From NCBI RefSeq assembly GCF_000317025.1, contig NC_019689.1:4635501-4699500 (forward strand): 64,000 nucleotides of DNA, given 5' to 3'. The translations under genes and the position numbers were made by a program. This document shows positions 13,233 through 62,846 of this stretch, one piece after another (within the stretch, counting starts at the first letter, position 1; each line of letters starts with the position of its first letter). The DNA is from Pleurocapsa sp. PCC 7327. GTDB taxonomy: Bacteria; Cyanobacteriota; Cyanobacteriia; Cyanobacteriales; Microcystaceae. The notes beneath the pieces are model-generated. The model had not been told where the DNA came from and made no database searches. It saw only the letters and a list, made by a program, of their open reading frames with translations.

Positions 13233-13263
13233 TGGGCGTTAAGTGAATGGTACGCTCGCACCC

Positions 13264-14514
13264 ATGAGAGTAACACGTAGAACCACCTTTCGCTTATATC
13301 CAACTAAATCTCAGGAGTCGAAATTGCATTATTGGCGACGACTTCATAAAGATTTGTTCAAGGCCTGTCTTTACCACAGAAAGACAGAATATCAGCGTTT
13401 TGGGAATTCTATTAGCTACTATGACCAGCAAAATATTCTGCCAGATTTCAAAGAATGTTGGCCTGAATATAAAGAATTAGGTGCGCAAGCTTTACAGGCA
13501 ACGGTAAAGGGTGTTGACTATGCCTTTCAACGTTTTTTCCGTGGATTGAGTGGATACCCAAAATTCAAGTCTGCACGACATGATCGTGGTCGGACTTATC
13601 CAGGAATAAGTGGATGGAAAGCGCATACATCAGGCGATAACGGCTACCTGGAATTGTCTAATTTAGGACAAATTCAGATGAGAGGTAAAGCTAGAACTTG
13701 GGGGACACCAACAACTTGTACAATCATCTGGAAACCAGGTAAATGGTATGCTTCAATCACTGTAAACTGCGAACCAAAACGAGAAACTAGCACTGGTGCT
13801 ATAGGTTTAGATTTTGGTACTCACCACGCTATTGCTTGTTCAGATGGAACAATAATTGCTCCTCCGAAATTTTTAGCCAAAACTCAACAAAAAATAAAGC
13901 AATTATCTAAGAGATTGCGTCGCAAGCGTGCGCCTAATTTCAAAAAGAAGATTAAAGCATCTAAACGTTGGAGAAAAGCCAGGAAACAAATTAGTAGACT
14001 TCAAAGTAAAGTGACCAATCAAAGACAAGATTGGCAACATCAAGTAGCTACACAGATAGGAAAGAGTAATTCACTGGTAGCTACTGAGAAGTTGAACATC
14101 AAAGGGATGACTCGTAAAGCAAACAAGGGCAGCCAAAGAAAACATCAAAAAACAGGACTCAATAGCTCGCTGTTAGATGTTGGGATTGGCAATCTAACTT
14201 CACTAATCAGATCTAAGCTCAGTGAATGTAGTGGGGTATTTGTTGAAGTACCTCTCAAAATTGCACCATCCCAAACTTGCCCTCGGTGTGGTTACAAAAA
14301 GAAAAAAGAGTTAGCCGAGCGTGTGCATCATTGTGAAAACTGCAACTTCACTGCGGCTCGTGATGTGGCAGCATCAATGGTAATGCTCAATTACGCTTTG
14401 GGGTTAGGAACTAGCCTCTCAAACGCTGATGCTGAACCTCTTTCTAAGACCCCACAGCATTGTGGAGGGTTTAGGAAAGTTCAGCAGGTGAAGCGTCAGA
14501 AACCTCGGAGGTAG
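13264..14514 (+). CDS. tnpB: TnpB (OrfB) RNA-guided endonuclease of the IS605-type element
   Basis: 416 residues from ATG at 13264; a GTG at 13243 would add seven residues but ATG gives the usual MRVTRRTTFRLYP start. The RuvC triad is intact: D183 (AIGLDFG), E275 (VATEKLNIKGM) and D367 (AARDVAAS). The zinc finger CPRCGY...CENCNF lies between the last two. An arginine/lysine-rich bridge-helix-like segment is at about 205-260. TnpB proteins are the ancestors of Cas12 and cut DNA using a guide RNA made from the element's right end. The gene looks fully functional, unlike tnpA. The C-terminal coding part overlaps the long hairpin at 14431-14485 that may belong to the guide RNA. Confidence 0.92.
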   Translation: MRVTRRTTFRLYPTKSQESKLHYWRRLHKDLFKACLYHRKTEYQRFGNSISYYDQQNILPDFKECWPEYKELGAQALQATVKGVDYAFQRFFRGLSGYPKFKSARHDRGRTYPGISGWKAHTSGDNGYLELSNLGQIQMRGKARTWGTPTTCTIIWKPGKWYASITVNCEPKRETSTGAIGLDFGTHHAIACSDGTIIAPPKFLAKTQQKIKQLSKRLRRKRAPNFKKKIKASKRWRKARKQISRLQSKVTNQRQDWQHQVATQIGKSNSLVATEKLNIKGMTRKANKGSQRKHQKTGLNSSLLDVGIGNLTSLIRSKLSECSGVFVEVPLKIAPSQTCPRCGYKKKKELAERVHHCENCNFTAARDVAASMVMLNYALGLGTSLSNADAEPLSKTPQHCGGFRKVQQVKRQKPRR

Positions 14515-18626: not shown

Positions 18627-19589
18627 ATGACCGTTTCTAGTCCTAGCCGCACCATTCGCATTGGTTCTCGCAAAAGCCAATTAGCCCTCGTTCAGACTTA
18701 CTGGGTGCAGGAACAACTTCAAAAACACTATCCCGACAGGCAGTTTGAAGTTGAAACCATGAGTACCCAAGGCGACAAAATTCTCGATGTCGCTCTCGCC
18801 AAAATTGGAGATAAGGGACTATTTACCAAAGAACTCGAAGTGGGAATGATCGACAAGCAAATCGATCTAGCCGTCCATTCTCTCAAAGATCTGCCCACCA
18901 AGTTACCCGAAGGCTTAATTTTAGGTTGCGTCACCGAACGAGTTAACCCCGCCGATGCTTTAGTTGTCAACGAAAAGCACAAAGATAAGCAGTTGGAGAC
19001 TTTACCAGAAGGCGCTGTGATTGGAACCTCCTCGCTGCGGCGCTTGGCCCAATTGCGCCATCATTTCCCTCACCTTACTTTCAAGGATGTGCGCGGAAAT
19101 GTCAATACCAGACTCTCTAAACTCGACGCGGGAGAGTACGACGCAATTATTCTAGCAGTTGCAGGATTGCAGCGATTGGGAATGGGCGATCGCATTCATC
19201 AGGTTATTTCCTCTGACATTTCGCTTCATGCCGTCGGACAAGGCGCGTTAGGGATTGAATGTCGCGCTGATGATGCAGAAGTTCTGGAAGTTCTGAAAGT
19301 ATTGGAACATGCCCAAACCCGCGATCGCTGTTATGCGGAACGGGCTTTCTTAAGAGAATTAGAAGGCGGATGTCAAGTTCCCATCGGAGTCAATACCAAA
19401 ATCGAAGGCGATACTCTCACCTTGACCGGAATGGTAGCGAGTTTGGATGGCAAAAATCTGGTCAAGGATACGATTAGCGGTCAACCCAGCGATGCCGAAC
19501 AATTGGGACGCGAATTAGCTATCCGCGTGCGTAACGCTGGCGCAGAGGAAATCTTGGCAGAAATTTTCGCGCAAATTGAGAGGGGTTAG
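18627..19589 (+). CDS. hemC: Porphobilinogen deaminase (hydroxymethylbilane synthase)
   Basis: 320 residues. HemC joins four porphobilinogens into hydroxymethylbilane in tetrapyrrole synthesis. Visible hallmarks: [15 protein letters not shown] at the N-terminus, the catalytic Asp D88 in HSLKDLP, the arginine-rich [28 protein letters not shown], and C249 in [10 protein letters not shown], which holds the dipyrromethane cofactor. It acts two steps before HemE, whose gene is about 7 kb away on the other strand. A 200-base spacer with a hairpin separates it from the helicase gene, so it probably has its own promoter. Confidence 0.96.
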
Positions 19590-19632
19590 TCATTAGTCAT
19601 TAGTCATTGGTCATTCGTCCTTGAAAAAGGAC
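19588..19632. repeat. Heptamer short tandem repeats (STRR type), left edge of accessory island
   Basis: Three successive copies of a TAGTCAT-like heptamer start right after the hemC stop, followed by a GTCCTT/AAGGAC hairpin (19617-19632). The reverse complement of the same motif (repeated AATGACT) recurs at 19977-20000 just before the Uma2 gene, and a related stretch is at 28155-28190. Heptameric tandem repeats of this type are known in cyanobacteria. Confidence 0.65.
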
Positions 19633-19704
19633 AAGTGATGTTGGTTTCGTTAATATCGGAATAATAATCACTATAAACTCAGAGCTTACACCTTTGGCAT
19701 CAAC

Positions 19705-19753
19705 GCCTAGAACTAAAGTTCTAGGCTCAAAGCTCAACTCGATTAAAATCGAC
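19705..19753. repeat. Two adjacent stem-loops in the hemC-Uma2 spacer
   Basis: GCCTAGAAC (19705-19713) pairs with GTTCTAGGC (19718-19726) around TAAA. A second short stem, CGATT/AATCG, follows at about 19739-19751. The first hairpin matches the one at 18456-18477 in layout (GCC-3 nt-AAC, 4-nt loop, GTT-3 nt-GGC), with compensating changes in the three variable pairs. Confidence 0.55.
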
Positions 19754-19834
19754 TGAAATTCCTATCGGGTCTTCTTTAGAAGACTTTTTGATCGGTTAAT
19801 TACAACAGTAGTTGTTAAGAAGGGTGCAAGATCT

Positions 19835-19910
19835 CGTCTTATAGGACTTGATATTTGGGTTCCAAAAAATTTATTTCTTGGTGAAATCAAGTCACAATGA
19901 AATAACCCTG
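19835..19910 (-). repeat. Structured dispersed repeat, copy A (inverted relative to copy B)
   Basis: Read on the minus strand this 76-base stretch matches 22983-23069 almost base for base, apart from an 11-base gap and a few substitutions. It includes GTTATTTCATTGTG, CCAAGAAATAAATTT and AAATATCAAGTCCTATAAG. It lacks the third hairpin found in copies B and C. It lies 100 bases before the Uma2 gene and, with copy B, bounds the Uma2/small ORF/ATPase cassette in inverted orientation. Confidence 0.8.
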
Positions 19911-20009
19911 CATCCATAAAGAGAGAGAAAAGAAAGAAATAAAATCTAATGGCGACAAATTGCCATAACAAAAAACAATGACTAATGACTAATGACAAAG
20001 GACAAAACA

Positions 20010-20627
20010 ATGACTTCAATTTTACTCAAAGATATTGTAGATGAATTTGAGTCTCAAATAGACGATCCAGAGGAAAAATTTATTACTACAGGAGTCAGCT
20101 GGGAACAGTATGAAAAGCTACTTGACAGACTCGGCGACAGTCTTCGATATCGGGTAACTTATTTAGACGGCATTTTAGAAATTATGTCTCCTAGTCGCCG
20201 CCACGAACGAAGTAAATCAGTAATTGCTTCTCTTCTAGAAGCCTACTTTCAAGAAAGGCGTATTCAATATTTTCCTCTTGGTTCAACGACGTTGTGTAAA
20301 GAAGAGAAAAAAGGTGGTACGGAACCAGATGAATCTTATTGTATTGGTATGGATAAAGAAATTCCAGATTTAGCTATTGAAGTAGTAGTAACCAGTGGTG
20401 GCGTAGATAAGTTGGCAGTATACAAAAAGCTAGGTGTTAGAGAAGTCTGGTTTTGGCAAAACGATCGATTTTCGGTTTACTGTCTGCGAGGAGACGAATA
20501 CGAAAAAATTCCAGCTAGTGAATTGTTACCAAATCTAGATTTGGAGCTATTATCACAGTATGTAACCCATACCGATATCCTAGAATCAATCTTAGAATTT
20601 CGGGCACAAATTCGTCAAAATAAATAG
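20010..20627 (+). CDS. Uma2-family (DUF820) PD-(D/E)XK nuclease-like protein
   Basis: 205 residues from ATG at 20010; an in-frame ATG at 19992 falls within heptamer repeat DNA and is less likely. The DUF820/Uma2 signature is clear: VSWEQYEKLLD, YLDGILEIMSPSRRHE, FPLGSTTL, GTEPDESYCI, then the active-site run IPDLAIEVVVTSGG and DKLAVYKKLGVREVWFW. Uma2 proteins have a PD-(D/E)XK fold and are very numerous in cyanobacteria, but their role is not established. The small ORF and the ATPase gene follow on the same strand with gaps of 33 and 75 bases, and inverted repeats bound the three genes. A working nuclease partner for the ATPase is a hypothesis only. Confidence 0.88.
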   Translation: MTSILLKDIVDEFESQIDDPEEKFITTGVSWEQYEKLLDRLGDSLRYRVTYLDGILEIMSPSRRHERSKSVIASLLEAYFQERRIQYFPLGSTTLCKEEKKGGTEPDESYCIGMDKEIPDLAIEVVVTSGGVDKLAVYKKLGVREVWFWQNDRFSVYCLRGDEYEKIPASELLPNLDLELLSQYVTHTDILESILEFRAQIRQNK

Positions 20628-20660
20628 ATAAAGATTAACGAGCAAGACACTCCACTACTA

Positions 20661-20834
20661 ATGACTAACGACTCCAATATCGATCGCGTTCAAGAACCTA
20701 TCGTAACGGCTCCACCAGAAGTTCGACAAATTATCGAAAAAGTTTTACAACTCGAGAAGGACAAACTTTATTTAAAAGCTCCTCGAAATATTAATGATGA
20801 TGTTCTCAAAATTGTGAAAGAGGTTATTCAATAA
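20661..20834 (+). CDS. 57-residue hypothetical protein upstream of the SMC-like ATPase
   Basis: ATG at 20661 opens a frame of 57 codons ending with TAA at 20832-20834. The protein is acidic and mostly helical, with VRQIIEKVLQLEKDKLYLK in the middle and INDDVLKIVKEVIQ at the C-terminus, and it has no membrane segment. I do not recognise the family. It sits 33 bases after the Uma2 gene and 75 bases before the ATPase gene on the same strand. There is no strong Shine-Dalgarno sequence, which is common in cyanobacteria. A small partner or regulatory subunit for the ATPase is possible; an antitoxin-like role for Uma2 is an alternative. Codon choice looks like its neighbours. Confidence 0.6.
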   Translation: MTNDSNIDRVQEPIVTAPPEVRQIIEKVLQLEKDKLYLKAPRNINDDVLKIVKEVIQ

Positions 20835-20909
20835 TTAGCGTTCTAAACGCGCGTTGCGTGCCTTTAAAATATATCGTCAGAGTTTTTGGAGTAAATTTAT
20901 TAGACTTCT

Positions 20910-22979
20910 ATGAAGCTTCTCTCGATTAAACTGTGTAATTTTCGACAATTTTATGGAAAAACTCCTGAAATAATTCTGGCTTTTGGGAAACAAAATACAA
21001 CGATTATTCATGGGAATAATGGTGCGGGTAAAACAACTCTCCTCAATGGGTTTACCTGGGCACTTTATGAGAAATTTACGGCTGCTTTTGCATCTCCTCA
21101 TTTATTGATTAATAAACGAGCAATTCATGAAGCGAATATTGGCGTATCGGTTGATTGTTGGGTAGAAGTTCAATTCGAGCATGAAAATAAACGCTATCAA
21201 GTCAAGCGTAAATGTTACGCTTGTCGCGATAAGGATAACAAGATTCAATATAGCCAAAGTAAGTTTTTTATGTTGATAGCGGGAGATGACGGACGTTGGT
21301 ATCCTCCGCTGCAACAGCCAGACGATATTATTAATAGAATATTGCCAGAAAGTTTGCATCAATATTTTTTCTTTGATGGAGAACATATCGACCATATTTT
21401 TCGAGCGAGTGAAAAGAGTAATATCGCCGAAGATACCAAAGAGTTATTAGGCGTTAAAGTTTTAGATCGCGCGATCGAGCATTTGAAAAAAGCTAAAAAA
21501 GCTTTACAAGAAGAATTGAAAGAGATTGGCGATCCAGATACAAAAAAGCTCTTGCAAGCGCAATCAAAATTAGAAAAAGAGAAAGAGCAATTACAGCAAA
21601 GCCGGCAACTAATTATTCAAACATTAACTCAACAGGAAGGGTTGAAAAAAAGCCTTTCTCATCGTTTATTAGAGTTGAGCGGGGCAGAAGAATTAAAACA
21701 ACTTAAAGAAAAACTAGAAAAACAAGAAAATGTCTTACGACAAAATCTATTAGAAGCAAAAAAGAAAATTCAGCGATCGCTCTCAAATCGAGGCTATAGT
21801 ATTTTCCTTCCTGAAATTATCTCACAATTTAATTCTTTAATTGACGAACTGCGAAAAAGAGGAGAGTTACCTAGTGGCATTAAACAACAATTCGTTCAAC
21901 AGTTATTAGACAGAAAACGCTGTATTTGTGGAATCGAACTTGTTGAAGACAGCGATCCTTATAAACAAGTTCAAGAATGGATGAATCGAGCCGGAATGGC
22001 TGATGTAGAAGAGTCAGCAATTCGTTTAGAATCTCAGGTTATAGAGATTGAAAAACAAGCTTTAGAATTTTGGCAAGAAGTCGATACAGAACAAGCAAAA
22101 ATCAATCAATGGAGAATAGAATTAGCACAAGTTGAAAATGAATTAGACGAGATCGGTAATAAATTTAGACATTATCCCGATGAAGAGATTAAAGCCATTC
22201 AAAAACAAGTAGATGAAATAGAAGACGCTATTAAAGAATTTATTTTAGAACAGGGGTCTCATCAACATCAAATAGAAGTCATCGAAAAGGAAATTGAGGA
22301 AATTGCTAAGCAGATTTCTAAGCAGAAAATCAAGGAAGAAAAACAAGTATTAGCCCAGAGACGAATTCGAGCAACTGAGGAGGCGATCGCGCGGTTAATA
22401 GAAGTCAAAAATCGTCTAGAAAAACAATTCCGTCTCTCTTTAGAAAAGCGAGTTAAAGAAATCTTTAGTTCGATTTCTTTTACCCCTTATATTCCTAGAA
22501 TTAGCGATAGTTATGAACTCAATCTTGTAGAAAATACATCGGGAATCGCCGTTCCCGTTGCTGCCTCTACAGGAGAAAATCAGATTTTGAGCTTATCATT
22601 TATCGGAGGAATTATCGATAGAGTAAGAGAATGGAGTCAAAAAAATACTCTTATGGGACCCGATAGCAGTACCTTTCCAATTGTCATGGATTCTCCCTTT
22701 GGAAGTTTAGATGAAATCTATCGACGGCAGGTGGCAAAAACTATTCCTCAATTAGCCAATCAATTGCTCGTTTTAGTGACAAAAACGCAGTGGCGAGGAG
22801 AATTAGAAGAAGAAATCAGCAATTATATCGGTAGAGAATATGTTTTAGTTTATAACTCTCCCAAACCAGATTGCGAAGAAGATGCGATCGCGCGAGGTGG
22901 AAAGCGTTATCCTTTAGTTAAGCGAAGTTCTAATTCGTTTGAATATACCGAAATAATTGAAATCGAAAAAGATGGTTAA
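20910..22979 (+). CDS. SMC/Rad50-like AAA ATPase, DndD-type
   Basis: 689 residues with the layout of a small SMC-like ATPase. Walker A GNNGAGKT is at 35-42. The DndD-type signature FFFDGEHID is at 153-161. Long coiled coils (about 185-290 and 360-515) flank a CxCG hook (C338, C340). The ABC signature STGENQILSLSF is at 553-564 and Walker B IVMDSPFGSLDE at 591-602, followed by VLVTKTQW. All ATPase motifs are intact. DndD proteins work in DNA phosphorothioation or phage restriction, and related ATPases act in DNA repair and other defence systems. No dndB, dndC or dndE gene is beside it. It forms an apparent unit with the Uma2 gene and the 57-residue ORF. Defence or repair is inferred from family and setting. 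Confidence 0.85.
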   Translation: MKLLSIKLCNFRQFYGKTPEIILAFGKQNTTIIHGNNGAGKTTLLNGFTWALYEKFTAAFASPHLLINKRAIHEANIGVSVDCWVEVQFEHENKRYQVKRKCYACRDKDNKIQYSQSKFFMLIAGDDGRWYPPLQQPDDIINRILPESLHQYFFFDGEHIDHIFRASEKSNIAEDTKELLGVKVLDRAIEHLKKAKKALQEELKEIGDPDTKKLLQAQSKLEKEKEQLQQSRQLIIQTLTQQEGLKKSLSHRLLELSGAEELKQLKEKLEKQENVLRQNLLEAKKKIQRSLSNRGYSIFLPEIISQFNSLIDELRKRGELPSGIKQQFVQQLLDRKRCICGIELVEDSDPYKQVQEWMNRAGMADVEESAIRLESQVIEIEKQALEFWQEVDTEQAKINQWRIELAQVENELDEIGNKFRHYPDEEIKAIQKQVDEIEDAIKEFILEQGSHQHQIEVIEKEIEEIAKQISKQKIKEEKQVLAQRRIRATEEAIARLIEVKNRLEKQFRLSLEKRVKEIFSSISFTPYIPRISDSYELNLVENTSGIAVPVAASTGENQILSLSFIGGIIDRVREWSQKNTLMGPDSSTFPIVMDSPFGSLDEIYRRQVAKTIPQLANQLLVLVTKTQWRGELEEEISNYIGREYVLVYNSPKPDCEEDAIARGGKRYPLVKRSSNSFEYTEIIEIEKDG

Positions 22980-22982
22980 TTC

Positions 22983-23105
22983 CAGAGTTATTTCATTGTG
23001 ACTTGATTTCACCTTGATTTCGCCAAGAAATAAATTTCTTGTCCCCCAAATATCAAGTCCTATAAGACGGACTTTAGCATCTTAGACAAAGAATTTATTC
23101 TCTGG
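22983..23105 (+). repeat. Structured dispersed repeat, copy B (three hairpins)
   Basis: This begins four bases after the ATPase stop. It carries hairpin 1 (CAAGAAAT at 23024-23031 with ATTTCTTG at 23034-23041), hairpin 2 (AAGTCC at 23055 with GGACTT ending at 23074) and an imperfect hairpin 3 (23087-23104). The first 87 bases match copy A in inverted orientation; the order of hairpins matches copy C at 58324-58479. The outer right arm seen in copy C is missing. Confidence 0.82.
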
Positions 23106-23192
23106 CTACTTTGAGGCGCACTCAGAAAGAAGATGACGGGCAAATTAATCGCTGGTTGTTACAAAAATTTAATTAAAATTTATTAAGCCTAA

Positions 23193-24578
23193 ATGATGAA
23201 GGGTCGCGAGATCCGCGCTCAACCACCGCTAGAATTCATTCCTCCTTCTCTCAATCCTATAGTTTTGCGAGGTTCTCAAATCATTTTGCCGCTGTGGTTG
23301 CGGTGGAAAACGAATATTGCTAGCATTCAAGCCGATCGCGTCGAAATTTTAGCCGATCTTTACCATCAGTTTCAACAAGGAAAAATTCGTTTTTTGATGG
23401 CATTTCGCCATCCCAATAGCGAAGATCCCTACGCCATGGTTTATCTTCTTTGGAAATTACTTCCCCAGGTGGCAAGAAGACAAGGGATCTCGCTACAAAC
23501 TCCTACCCACGCCCATTTTATCTACGATCGCGGCATTCCTCTTTGGGCAGGCGAGAGGATAGGATGGCTTTACTCTCAGTTGGGCGGCACTCCCATCGTG
23601 CGCGGCAAAATGGACTTGATGGGATTGCGATCGGCGCGTCAGTTGTTTGCAGAGGGTCGTTTTCCTATGATGGCAGCACCAGAGGGAGCAACCAACGGTC
23701 ATAACGAGATTGTCAGTCCTATAGAACCAGGAATTTCACAACTCGGCTTTTGGTGCATTGAAGATCTACAAAAAGCCCAACGTTCCCAACAAGTTCTCAT
23801 TGTCCCCGTCGGCATACAGTATCGTTACGTTACTCCTCCCTGGAAAGAAATAGAAAAACTCTTAACGCAATTAGAAATCGAAACTGGTTTAACCACTCTC
23901 CAAACATCAGAAGCATCCGATGAAAAGATTCTCTATCAGAGACTTTATCGATTGGGAGAGCATCTTTTATCGCTGATGGAGGAATTTTATCGAGAGTTTT
24001 ATCATCAAACCTTACCACAACCGAAGACAGAAACAAGCCAGTTAGATGCTGAGGCAGTCTTATCAATTCGATTGCAGAATTTACTAGACGTTGCTCTCAA
24101 GGTTGCAGAAGAGTTTTTCGTCTTACCACCAAAAGGTAACTTTATCGATCGCTGTCGTCGTCTAGAACAAGCGGGATGGGATTATATTTATCGCGAAGAA
24201 CTCAAATCCACCCATAATCTCTCGCCAGTAGAACGGGGATTGGCCGATCGCATTGCTGAAGAAGCCAACTTGCGGATGTGGCATATGCGACTGGTAGAAA
24301 CTTTTGTTGCCGTTACGTGGTACTACGTGCAGGAAAAACCGACGGCAGAGCGAATTGCAGAGACAACCTTACTGTTGTGGGATTGCGTCACTCGCATCAA
24401 AAGTGGAAACCCTTTCTTTCGCCCTCGCCTGGGAAAACAGCAAGTTCATATGACAATTGGCGAACCGATTTCTGTTTCAGATCGTTGGCATGACTATAAA
24501 CAAAATCGCCGTCAAGCCGTTGCCACGCTAACGAAAGACTTACAAATGGCATTGGAGAGTACGATCGCAAAAAATTGA
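23193..24578 (+). CDS. Phospholipid/glycerol acyltransferase (PlsC-like) family protein
   Basis: 461 residues. The acyltransferase motif H-x4-D is present as HPNSED (about residue 73), and APEGATNGHN (about 165) corresponds to the substrate-binding EGT motif. A further VPVGIQYRYV block fits motif IV. The second half, from about residue 210, is a helical region of unknown role, so the protein is longer than a typical PlsC. Members transfer an acyl chain to glycerol-3-phosphate or lysophosphatidate at the membrane. Two ATG codons lie in tandem at 23193 and 23196. It is the first gene to the right of repeat copy B, and its stop almost touches the convergent secreted-protein gene. Confidence 0.85.
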   Translation: MMKGREIRAQPPLEFIPPSLNPIVLRGSQIILPLWLRWKTNIASIQADRVEILADLYHQFQQGKIRFLMAFRHPNSEDPYAMVYLLWKLLPQVARRQGISLQTPTHAHFIYDRGIPLWAGERIGWLYSQLGGTPIVRGKMDLMGLRSARQLFAEGRFPMMAAPEGATNGHNEIVSPIEPGISQLGFWCIEDLQKAQRSQQVLIVPVGIQYRYVTPPWKEIEKLLTQLEIETGLTTLQTSEASDEKILYQRLYRLGEHLLSLMEEFYREFYHQTLPQPKTETSQLDAEAVLSIRLQNLLDVALKVAEEFFVLPPKGNFIDRCRRLEQAGWDYIYREELKSTHNLSPVERGLADRIAEEANLRMWHMRLVETFVAVTWYYVQEKPTAERIAETTLLLWDCVTRIKSGNPFFRPRLGKQQVHMTIGEPISVSDRWHDYKQNRRQAVATLTKDLQMALESTIAKN

Positions 24579-58323: not shown

Positions 58324-58479
58324 CTGAATCAATTCAGAGTTATTTCATTCTGATTGCACTTAACCAAGAAATGAATTTCTTGGCTCAAAATTTAAGTCCG
58401 TCTTATAGGACTTAAGGAATTAGACAGAGAATTTATTCTCTGGCTTTCGAGAATGAAATAGCTCTGTGAATCAATCCAG
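58324..58479 (+). repeat. MITE-like structured repeat, copy C (terminal inverted repeats, three hairpins)
   Basis: About 156 bases. The ends are inverted repeats: AGAGTTATTTCATTCT (58336-58351) pairs with AGAATGAAATAGCTCT (58450-58465) with one mismatch, and the pairing extends outwards through AATCAATT-type sequence. Inside are hairpin 1 (CCAAGAAAT 58364-58372 with ATTTCTTGG 58375-58383), hairpin 2 (AAGTCC 58394-58399 with GGACTT 58408-58413) and hairpin 3 (CAGAGAAT 58425-58432 with ATTCTCTG 58435-58442). The order matches copy B; hairpin 2 is inverted relative to B. No gene is inside. Confidence 0.85.
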
Positions 58480-61334: not shown

Positions 61335-62846
61335 ATGATCTTAAAGTTACTTCAGATTGATGAGTCTTATAATTCTCCTAAGTTATCCTCTATAAACTGG
61401 GAAAAGTTAGCTCAAGAATATCAAGATCGAAAAGTTGCAGAATCGGGAGTATCTTATCAGTCTAAACCCTTAGGATACCCGAAAATTCCTACCGATCTCC
61501 AACTGCGAGACTATCAGCAAACTGCCATTATTAGTTGGTTTCGTAACAAAGGACGAGGAACGCTAAAAATGGCAACGGGCAGTGGAAAAACCATTGTCGC
61601 CCTCGCGATCGCAACCGAACTATACCAAAAAATTGGTTTGCAGGTTCTTTTGGTAGTTTGTCCTTATTGCCATCTAGTCACGCAATGGGCAAGAGAATGT
61701 GAAAAATTTAATTTAAAACCTATTTTAGCGTTTGAAAACGTTCATAACTGGCAAAGTCAACTGTCTGCACAATTATATACTCTTCGTTTATATACTCTTC
61801 GTTGTGGAAATCAATCTTTTCTAACGGTTATTACGACCAATTCCACCTTAATGGGAGAAGGATTTCAATCCCAACTTAAGTTTTTTCCTGAGAAAACTCT
61901 GATTGTTGGCGATGAAGCTCATAACCTCGGTTCGACTCGTTTAGAAGAGAGTTTACCGCGAAAAATTGGTCTGCGACTAGCTCTATCGGCAACGCCAGAA
62001 AGATATTTTGATGAAGATGGAACGAAAGCTATATTAAATTATTTTGGCGAGATTTTACAACCTGAATTTACGCTTGCCGATGCGATTGATAAAGGGGCAT
62101 TAGTTCGCTATTATTACCATCCTATTTTAGTAGAATTAACGCTATCAGAAGCTTTAACTTATGCTAAATTGACGCAACGAATTGGTTGGGCATTAGAAGA
62201 TAACGCGGATTGGACAAAAAATGAGATGTTAACTTCATTATTGATGCAGCGATCGCGTTTAGTTGGCGCAGCAGCGAATAAATTAGAAGCTTTGCGAAAT
62301 TTAATGGTTAAACGCTTGCATACTCGCCATACACTTTTTTATTGCGGCGACGGGTATGTCGATAATTCTTCTTCTGCGATTTATAGCCGTCAATTAGAAG
62401 CCGTGACGCGCATTTTAGGGACAGAATTAGGCTATCGAGTTAATACTTATACTGCTCAAACGCCACTAGAAGAAAGAGAAAAAATGCGACAACAATTTGA
62501 AAGCGGAGAGTTACAAGGTTTAGTTGCGATTCGCTGTTTAGATGAAGGAGTCGATATTCCCGCCATTCAAAACGCCGTAATCTTAGCCAGTACCGGAAAT
62601 CCCCGTCAATTTATTCAGCGTCGGGGGAGAATCTTGCGTCCTCATCCCGGTAAAACCCATGCAACCTTATTTGATACGATCGTTATGCCACCAGAATTAG
62701 ATCGAGAAATTTGGGAAGTCGAACGCAATTTATTGCGAAAGGAATTAAAGCGTTTTATTGAGTTTGCCAATTTAGCCGATAATGCTGAAGAAGCTAAAGC
62801 AAAATTAAAAATCGTTCAAGAGAAATATGATTTGTTAGATAGTTAA
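61335..62846 (+). CDS. Superfamily 2 DEAD/DEAH-type helicase of restriction/repair type
   Basis: 503 residues. Motif I is MATGSGKTIVALAIA, preceded by the Q-like LRDYQQTAIISWF. Motif II is GDEAHNLGS, motif III LALSATPERYFD. The second domain has YTAQTPLEEREKMRQQF, VAIRCLDEGVDIPAIQNAVIL and RQFIQRRGRILRPHPGK (motif VI). It resembles the helicases of restriction systems, including one type linked to DNA phosphorothioation, but this cannot be fixed by eye. A 15-base tandem duplication (61773-61802) gives YTLRL-YTLRC inside the first domain without breaking the frame. It is convergent with the Anbu gene. Confidence 0.87.
   Translation: MILKLLQIDESYNSPKLSSINWEKLAQEYQDRKVAESGVSYQSKPLGYPKIPTDLQLRDYQQTAIISWFRNKGRGTLKMATGSGKTIVALAIATELYQKIGLQVLLVVCPYCHLVTQWARECEKFNLKPILAFENVHNWQSQLSAQLYTLRLYTLRCGNQSFLTVITTNSTLMGEGFQSQLKFFPEKTLIVGDEAHNLGSTRLEESLPRKIGLRLALSATPERYFDEDGTKAILNYFGEILQPEFTLADAIDKGALVRYYYHPILVELTLSEALTYAKLTQRIGWALEDNADWTKNEMLTSLLMQRSRLVGAAANKLEALRNLMVKRLHTRHTLFYCGDGYVDNSSSAIYSRQLEAVTRILGTELGYRVNTYTAQTPLEEREKMRQQFESGELQGLVAIRCLDEGVDIPAIQNAVILASTGNPRQFIQRRGRILRPHPGKTHATLFDTIVMPPELDREIWEVERNLLRKELKRFIEFANLADNAEEAKAKLKIVQEKYDLLDS

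What the first reader, a model, noticed from the sequence alone, without database searches (positions are those of the whole stretch)
19835..23105. Uma2 nuclease / 57-aa protein / DndD-Rad50-like ATPase cassette bounded by inverted structured repeats
Three same-strand genes (20010-20627, 20661-20834, 20910-22979) lie between two inverted copies of one repeat (19835-19910 minus, 22983-23069 plus; nearly identical over about 76 bases). The ATPase has intact Walker A and B, an ABC signature, the DndD-type DGEHI motif and a CxCG hook. Uma2 has a PD-(D/E)XK fold. A nuclease-like protein, an SMC-like ATPase and a small third protein recall the general plan of Lamassu and Dnd-linked defence, but neither known system is complete here: no dndB, C or E. 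The repeats may have moved or duplicated the cassette. This is my best candidate for an undescribed system; the function is inferred.
Basis: partly seen in the sequence, partly recalled or inferred. Interest (0 to 1): 0.75.

Follow-up and report, generated by a model that had tools for sequence, protein, structure and literature searches.

The report
Scattered cyanobacterial DNA-sulfur defence partner genes
The small protein and the ATPase look like two parts of a DNA-sulfur (phosphorothioate) linked system whose other parts lie scattered around the same chromosome, yet cyanobacteria tend to keep or lose the parts together; the neighbouring nuclease gene is only an occasional companion.

Summary
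The three genes and inverted repeats are real, but the cassette is misread. The 689-aa ATPase is PbeC-type (PADLOC PbeC 1057 bits; DndD model 142 bits, under its cut-off). The 57-aa gene is its partner at the PbeB position: upstream in 79 of 80 cyanobacterial loci, overlapping by 1-4 nt in 71. The window's Uma2 subfamily adjoins the pair in only 3 of 80 loci; other Uma2 genes adjoin it in 12 more, so Uma2 may be an optional accessory. The repeat is a dispersed element; its left copy is missing at the same site in Hydrococcus rivularis. The partners are elsewhere on the chromosome: a PbeA-like helicase in this window (61335-62846), a DndE-fold PbeD candidate, DndC, and DndD with DndE. In 58 near-complete genomes chosen from the order, PbeC and PbeD occur in the same 49, although in 21 of those no two of PbeA, PbeC, PbeD and DndC lie within 10 kb. 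The PbeC tree nearly follows taxonomy. PbeA here lacks the PLD/HKD nuclease part that longer relatives show. Best reading: a near-vertically inherited, chromosome-scattered, nuclease-poor variant of Dnd-Pbe, not a new system; function inferred.

The parts
20661..20834 (+). 57-aa small protein at the PbeB / SP position
   Evidence: Upstream of the ATPase in 79 of 80 loci (overlap of 1-4 nt in 71 of those 79) and in 45 of 49 near-complete genomes; mean column identity 64% in 22 sequences; dN/dS 0.04-0.07. No family-library hit to PbeB or SP; homology to the operonic SP not shown statistically.
20910..22979 (+). 689-aa PbeC-type (CxC-hook) ABC ATPase
   Evidence: PADLOC PbeC PDLC02753 1057 bits over 1-648/648; TIGR03185 DndD 141.6 bits, under its cut-off of 245.85; hook and ABC positions conserved; predicted Rad50/SMC-like head and coiled coil.
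61335..62846 (+). 503-aa PbeA-like SF2 helicase without the PLD/HKD nuclease part, 38.5 kb from the ATPase
   Evidence: TIGR04095 656.8 bits, over its cut-off of 600; PADLOC PbeA matched from profile position 224 on; helicase/ResIII Pfam domains only, while 3 of 3 longer relatives also show PLDc_2 and match PADLOC PbeA from its start; ORF.
19992..20627 (+). Uma2-family nuclease-like gene; close-relative neighbour, optional accessory at most
   Evidence: PF05685 78.3 bits; PADLOC PDC-S17 278.9 bits; same subfamily beside the pair only in L039-L041 of 80 loci; 22 Uma2 matches in the genome.
19835..19910 (-). copy of a dispersed non-coding repeat, not a cassette border
   Evidence: at least 32 matches in the genome; absent at the orthologous site in L039; no Rfam match.
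22983..23069 (+). second copy of the dispersed repeat, with an 11-nt insertion

Best explanation
The 57-aa protein and the ATPase are the PbeB-position protein and the PbeC ATPase of a Dnd-Pbe system whose genes are dispersed over the chromosome: PbeA helicase (window 61.3 kb), a PbeD candidate with a DndE-like predicted fold (contig 4.786 Mb), DndC (4.039 Mb), and DndD with DndE (2.64 Mb). Shown: the gene set, its co-retention without linkage, near-vertical inheritance of PbeC, purifying selection on B and C, and the lack of the PLD/HKD part in this PbeA. Inferred: DndC/D/E with a cysteine desulfurase put phosphorothioates into host DNA; PbeC with PbeD clamps and scans DNA, the small protein sets the complex's activity, and PbeA translocates or remodels DNA at unmodified sites, blocking replication of incoming DNA as reported for haloarchaeal PbeABCD, possibly helped in some lineages by an adjacent Uma2 nuclease.
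For: PbeC model match. Small protein upstream of PbeC in 79 of 80 loci. In other cyanobacteria the same pair sits with a helicase cluster upstream (42 of 80 loci; its scanned representative is TIGR04095/PbeA) and a cluster downstream (25 of 80; representative TIGR04062), with DndC in 13 of 80 loci. G000 holds PbeA, the PbeD candidate, DndC, DndD and DndE. PbeC and PbeD occur in the same 49 of 58 near-complete genomes; PbeA in 47 of those 49; DndC in 48 of those 49 (Fisher P 9e-11 for PbeD, 5e-9 for PbeA, 4e-8 for DndC). In 21 of the 49 none of the six gene pairs among PbeA, PbeC, PbeD, DndC is within 10 kb, circularity counted. In the family's 50 genomes 28 have all five genes, 14 none, 8 a partial set. 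PbeC tree 14 label changes against a minimum of 13; PbeD tree 17. The PbeD model's four best PDB matches are DndE structures. dN/dS 0.04-0.10 for B and C.
Against: No activity data. The 57-aa protein matches no PbeB or Sp-DndD model, and its profile match to the operonic SP is weak (probability 3%). The PbeD candidate matches no PADLOC model (the operonic DndE-like ORF of L132 matches none either), and its DndE fold match has Foldseek E 0.13. DndB was not found; the cysteine desulfurase was not searched for. PbeA is missing in G060 and G347, DndC in G214; three genomes have PbeC with no small gene seen directly upstream. Vertical inheritance, wide occurrence and no nuclease domain are unusual for a defence system. 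Co-occurrence within one order is inflated by shared ancestry; the Fisher tests treat genomes as independent, and the 58 genomes were chosen with their PbeD state already known.
Confidence: 0.72

Rival explanations
1. The scattered Pbe set has been domesticated: it is no longer phage defence but a housekeeping machine that reads or positions phosphorothioates, for genome maintenance, replication control or oxidative-stress protection.
For: The PbeD candidate is present in 331 of 388 genomes of the order that were searched; PbeC tree near-congruent with taxonomy; genes dispersed; PbeA without the PLD/HKD part; an antioxidant origin of cyanobacterial dnd was argued in PMC8569181 (passages).
Against: The genes are absent together in 14 of 50 family genomes, so they are dispensable; relatives act against viruses (PMC6459918, passages).
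Confidence: 0.4
2. One reading: Uma2, the 57-aa protein and the ATPase form one defence cassette in which Uma2 is the effector nuclease.
For: Same strand with short gaps; Uma2 matches PADLOC PDC-S17 and is under purifying selection (dN/dS 0.11-0.14); some Uma2 gene lies within 300 nt of the pair in 15 of 80 loci, mostly just behind PbeC in Microcoleus-like genomes; 6-7 label changes on the PbeC tree.
Against: The window's Uma2 subfamily is beside the pair in only 3 of 80 loci; 65 of 80 loci have no adjacent Uma2; 22 Uma2 matches in this genome.
Confidence: 0.12
3. A Rad50/SbcC-like repair ATPase unrelated to phosphorothioation, kept by chance beside a small ORF.
For: Rad50 structures are the best PDB matches by fold and by sequence.
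Against: PbeC model match, the small-protein link, and co-retention with PbeA, PbeD, DndC and DndD.
Confidence: 0.05

Closest known systems
PbeABCD with DndCDEA (haloarchaea; PMC6459918)
   Same: PbeC-type ATPase, a small protein of similar size directly upstream, a ResIII/SF2 helicase homologous to PbeA, a DndE-fold protein of PbeD size, Dnd modification genes in the same genome.
   Different: Genes scattered rather than contiguous in this genome; no two of the four markers within 10 kb in 21 of 49 near-complete genomes; PbeA lacks the N-terminal PLD part; near-vertical inheritance within an order.
CxC-ABC ATPase / DndE systems with HKD-helicase and SP (PMC10853773)
   Same: CxC hook, SP, DndE-like partner, helicase.
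   Different: There the ATPase is described as universally linked to DndE, the SP as rapidly evolving and PbeA as HKD-fused in the vast majority (passages); here PbeC and the PbeD candidate are over 10 kb apart in 32 of 49 genomes, the small protein is well conserved, and PbeA has no such part.
TIGR04095 and TIGR04062 phosphorothioation-dependent families (ProPhylo 2011, PMC3226654)
   Same: The same helicase and PbeD-candidate families, found there by co-occurrence with DndD.
   Different: The passages read do not name the 57-aa protein or PbeC, and the term cyanobacteri has no occurrence in the main text.
Lamassu (LmuA nuclease, LmuB SMC-like ATPase, LmuC; recalled)
   Same: General plan of an SMC-like ATPase with a nuclease and a small subunit; distant fold similarity (Lamassu entries at ranks 39-40).
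   Different: The ATPase scores as PbeC/DndD in the 25 shown of 70 PADLOC matches; Uma2 not obligate.

Membership tests
PbeABCD | PbeC-type ATPase | tested here: met
   PDLC02753, 1057 bits, full model length
PbeABCD | PbeB small protein | tested here: inconclusive
   Position and size fit in 79 of 80 loci; no PADLOC/Pfam/NCBIfam PbeB or SP match; weak profile match to the operonic SP
PbeABCD | PbeD, the DndE cognate | tested here: inconclusive
   TIGR04062 208 bits in the genome; DndE structures are the four best fold matches, best E 0.13 and probability 0.97; profile match to the operonic DndE E 2.4e-4, probability 44%; no PADLOC match
PbeABCD | PbeA with PLD/HKD nuclease fused to SF2 helicase | tested here: not met
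   Helicase only: PADLOC profile matched from 224 on, no PLD domain in Pfam; control: 3 of 3 longer relatives show PLDc_2 (27.4, 24.4, 24.8 bits, cut-off 27) and match PbeA from its start. Open frames are 456-544 aa in the 47 genomes
PbeABCD | four genes contiguous | tested here: not met
   PbeA 38.5 kb and the PbeD candidate 128 kb from PbeC in G000
PbeABCD | phosphorothioate modification genes in the same genome | tested here: met
   DndC 704 bits, DndD 693 bits, DndE PF08870 151.5 bits; DndA/IscS not searched
PbeABCD | phosphorothioate-dependent block of virus replication | not testable with these tools
   needs experiments
CxC ABC ATPase clade | CxC hook at the coiled-coil apex | tested here: met
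   C338 and C340 invariant in 28 sequences, in the stretch between long predicted helices
CxC ABC ATPase clade | operonic link to a DndE | tested here: not met
   PbeD candidate within 10 kb of PbeC in 17 of 49 genomes, not in G000
DndD | TIGR03185 over its cut-off | tested here: not met
   141.6 bits against 245.85
Lamassu | LmuB-type ATPase with obligate nuclease partner | tested here: not met
   PbeC/DndD fill the 25 shown of 70 PADLOC matches; no adjacent Uma2 in 65 of 80 loci

The most novel reading that the evidence does not exclude
Most Cyanobacteriales carry one ancient, vertically inherited phosphorothioate-reading machine whose genes (PbeA, PbeB-PbeC, PbeD, DndC, DndD-DndE) lie scattered over the chromosome in many lineages yet are kept or lost as one set; having no PLD/HKD nuclease part, it works by clamping and remodelling unmodified DNA, serving as core genome surveillance rather than as mobile defence, with Uma2 nucleases recruited in some lineages.
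Probability: 0.4. Interest if true: 0.8.

Novelty: new variant of a known kind. Interest (0 to 1): 0.58.

Why it matters
Tools that look for clustered genes would call a scattered but co-retained system orphan or incomplete. PMC8569181 (passages) states that PT restriction systems are absent in Cyanobacteria, where its PT R component is dndFGH; 'Pbe' has no occurrence in its main text. Here the PbeD candidate is found in 331 of 388 genomes of the order searched, and PbeC goes with DndC in 48 of 49 near-complete genomes. PMC10853773 (passages) calls CxC ATPases universally linked to DndE; in 32 of 49 genomes here the two are over 10 kb apart. It makes a question testable: what does a Pbe set without the PLD/HKD nuclease do in a photosynthetic bacterium, and is it defence at all?

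Tried and rejected
Considered and rejected: a Uma2 cassette as a unit; repeats as mobilisers; the repeat as a known RNA (no Rfam hit at 19000-24000); canonical DndD; Lamassu; an orphan PbeBC without its system, my first reading, overturned when PbeA, the PbeD candidate, DndC and DndD were found elsewhere in the same genome. Led nowhere: PDB sequence searches with the small protein and the PbeD candidate (nothing convincing); profile comparison of the small protein with the operonic SP (weak). Literature: searches listed no paper on Pbe in cyanobacteria beyond those cited; one search listed 15 of 68 papers and one search listed 16, most of them unrelated; of these I opened only the papers cited.

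Rows dropped and limits: L041 (broken ATPase frame) was left out of the trees and the ATPase alignment; G023 (masked N over the start of PbeC) was left out of the PbeB and tree counts but kept in presence counts; G040's weak PbeD match (3.6e-11) and the DndC fragments in G011 and G017 were treated as absent. In one search only the best 80 of 326 relatives were returned, so the 80-locus counts lean to close relatives. The 58 genomes were picked by me for few contigs from those listed: 49 with PbeD and 9 without. Neighbour counts come from my ORF clustering, with one representative of each cluster scanned. The Uma2 profile was built from Uma2 genes of these same loci, so other Uma2 types, near or far, may be missed. 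One search scored 40 of 68 candidates, so 32 repeat matches is a lower bound. No species tree was compared; family labels of the tool served instead.
Full report
What is in the sequence. The window lies at 4,635,501-4,699,500 of a single 4,986,817-base contig, G000; the closest named relative returned was Hydrococcus rivularis NIES-593, with an ATPase 96% identical. I recall that Pleurocapsa sp. PCC 7327 has such a genome, but no call names the organism.

What the ATPase is. It matches PADLOC PbeC PDLC02753 over the model's whole length at 1057 bits, while the DndD equivalog model gives 141.6 bits against a cut-off of 245.85. In 28 orthologues most ABC motif positions and the two hook cysteines with the following glycine are invariant. 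The predicted model (mean pLDDT 78.0, pTM 0.54) has Rad50 and SMC-like structures as best PDB matches. It has the marks of the CxC ABC ATPase that PMC10853773 equates with PbeC (passages). PMC6459918 mentions a resemblance of PbeC to an SMC protein of H. rivularis, 24% identical (passages), perhaps this gene's orthologue.

What the 57-aa protein is. In the best 80 of 326 relatives it is found upstream of the ATPase in 79, with a 1-4 nt overlap in 71 of the 79. In near-complete genomes of the order it was found in 44 of the 48 fetched, plus the window: 45 of 49. It was not seen directly upstream in G331, G057 and G141, and G023 is masked there. In 39 of those 44 the two genes overlap by 4 or 1 nt; in the window they are 75 nt apart. 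It is conserved (mean column identity 64% in 22 sequences; the ATPase has 70% in 28) with dN/dS 0.04-0.07 against two relatives, so it is not rapidly evolving here, unlike the SP described in PMC10853773. It matches no PbeB or SP model. A 67-aa SP of an operonic system in the same genus matches PF20306 Sp-DndD and PbeB weakly, and the profile comparison between the two is weak; PbeB identity therefore rests on position.

Where the partners are. In other cyanobacteria the pair stands behind a helicase cluster (42 of 80 loci, 41 within 1.5 kb; scanned representative TIGR04095, 657 bits) and before another cluster (25 of 80; representative TIGR04062, 186 bits), with DndC in 13 of 80 loci. In G000 the same genes exist but apart: PbeA-like helicase at contig 4,696,979-4,698,334 (window 61335-62846), TIGR04062 at 4,786,345-4,786,797, DndC at 4,039,226-4,040,560, DndD at 2,644,301-2,646,277 with DndE within about 1 kb. 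No DGQHR/DndB match. TIGR04062 fits PbeD: the four best PDB matches of its model (mean pLDDT 75.2) are DndE structures, the best with probability 0.97 but E 0.13, and its profile matches the operonic DndE with E 2.4e-4 and probability 44%. It matches no PADLOC model.

Are the scattered genes one system? I chose 58 near-complete genomes, 49 with TIGR04062 and 9 without. PbeC is in exactly those 49; PbeA in 47 of them (missing in G060, G347) and in none of the 9; DndC in 48 of them (missing in G214) and, as a partial match, in G077 of the 9. In 21 of the 49 none of the six pairs among PbeA, PbeC, PbeD and DndC lies within 10 kb, circularity counted; PbeC-PbeD are within 10 kb in 17 of 49, PbeC-PbeA in 19 of 47, PbeC-DndC in 14 of 48. 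In the family's 50 genomes, 28 have PbeC, PbeA, PbeD, DndC and DndD, 14 have none, and 8 have a partial set (tabulated). Of these 8, G007, G014 and G016 are under 90% complete, G011 and G017 have DndC fragments, and G023 is partly masked; G028 lacks only PbeC, and G045 has only DndC and DndD. Genera g4 and g10 contain both states, and all five genes change together there, apart from a weak PbeD match in G040. Across the order TIGR04062 is found in 331 of 388 genomes searched, 330 over its cut-off. The PbeC tree of 48 rows needs 14 changes of family label against a minimum of 13 (families f33, f17 and f8 are not single clades), the PbeD tree 17, with none of 200 shuffles as low. Distances between PbeC and PbeD sequences correlate (r 0.74; largest of 1000 permutations 0.25). 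Shared ancestry contributes to all of these numbers; the joint changes inside genera are the stronger point.

What differs from known Pbe. PbeA in this set lacks the N-terminal PLD/HKD part: the match begins at PADLOC profile position 224, and Pfam shows only helicase/ResIII domains above cut-off. As a control, three longer relatives (680-686 aa) from the family, one from the same genus, all show PLDc_2 (27.4, 24.4, 24.8 bits; cut-off 27) and match PbeA from its start. The 47 open frames are 456-544 aa. An operonic set of the longer type lies beside DndC in a genus relative (L132, where its PbeA is only 564 aa and shows no PLD domain), and the corresponding island is broken in G000.

Uma2. The window's Uma2 subfamily is beside the pair only in L039-L041: two are titled Hydrococcus; the third is titled Gracilibacteria but holds a broken 79% copy like that of G021, a genome of the same genus. 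G000 has 22 Uma2 matches. Against a purely chance reading, some Uma2 gene lies within 300 nt of the pair in 15 of 80 loci, with 18 in 804 kb further out (profile built from these loci), the PbeC tree needs 7 label changes, at least 6 forced by well-supported branches, and the window's Uma2 is under purifying selection. A recurrent optional accessory is the fairest reading.

Repeats. The element has at least 32 matches in the genome, no Rfam match, and its left copy is missing at the orthologous site of H. rivularis although all three genes are present. A pair this close by chance is about as likely as not.

What is known. PMC3226654 (passages) built TIGR04062 and TIGR04095 as strictly phosphorothioation-dependent families. 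PMC8569181 (passages) reports vertical dnd inheritance in Cyanobacteriales and disordered operons, and states that PT restriction systems are absent in Cyanobacteria; 'Pbe' does not occur in its main text. PMC8546630 (passages) reports dndBC and dndDE on separate contigs in Microcoleus, citing Microcystis, with a type III enzyme nearby. Scattering of dnd genes is therefore not new. In the listings I saw no paper that joins PbeB/PbeC to the scattered set in cyanobacteria; most subscription papers are not held, and no supplements were read.

Verdict. Not an undescribed Uma2-ATPase system, but two parts of a scattered, co-retained, near-vertically inherited Dnd-Pbe variant without the PLD/HKD nuclease part. 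Steps shown: gene identity (firm for PbeC, PbeA, DndC, DndD, DndE; by position for PbeB; by fold for PbeD), co-retention, dispersal, purifying selection. Steps inferred: complex formation, DNA scanning, replication block, regulatory role of the small protein.

Noticed in passing
G000 contig 4,032,700-4,040,700 (L127 4706-12699), outside the window: A second, operonic-type Dnd/Pbe island: the longer PbeA and its ATPase are in pieces, while DndC, a DndE-like ORF, an SP-like ORF and a Uma2 gene are open; a genus relative holds a longer PbeA (L233, 680 aa) and another holds an open ATPase beside DndC (L132).
   Followed up: partly
window 13243-14514 +: IS605 OrfB/TnpB-type gene (PF01385 and the Cas12f1-like TNB domain), 423 aa from a GTG start.
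   Followed up: no
window 19835-19910, 22983-23069, 58335-58399 and further genome places (at least 32 in all): Dispersed non-coding repeat of about 76 nt with an internal near-palindrome; origin and mover unknown.
   Followed up: partly
L062, L063, L085, L086, L095, L098, L102, L103, L105, L113, L116, 3' end of the ATPase gene: A Uma2 ORF (earliest start codon) begins about 10-46 nt before the end of the PbeC ORF, suggesting co-transcription in Microcoleus-like lineages.
   Followed up: partly
L152 (G331), L179 (G057), L180 (G141): PbeC without a recognisable 57-aa gene directly upstream; whether the gene is elsewhere in those genomes was not searched.
   Followed up: no
G045 contig C26: DndC and DndD about 3.3 kb apart without PbeA, PbeC or PbeD, in a genus whose other listed members lack the set; may be a later acquisition.
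   Followed up: no
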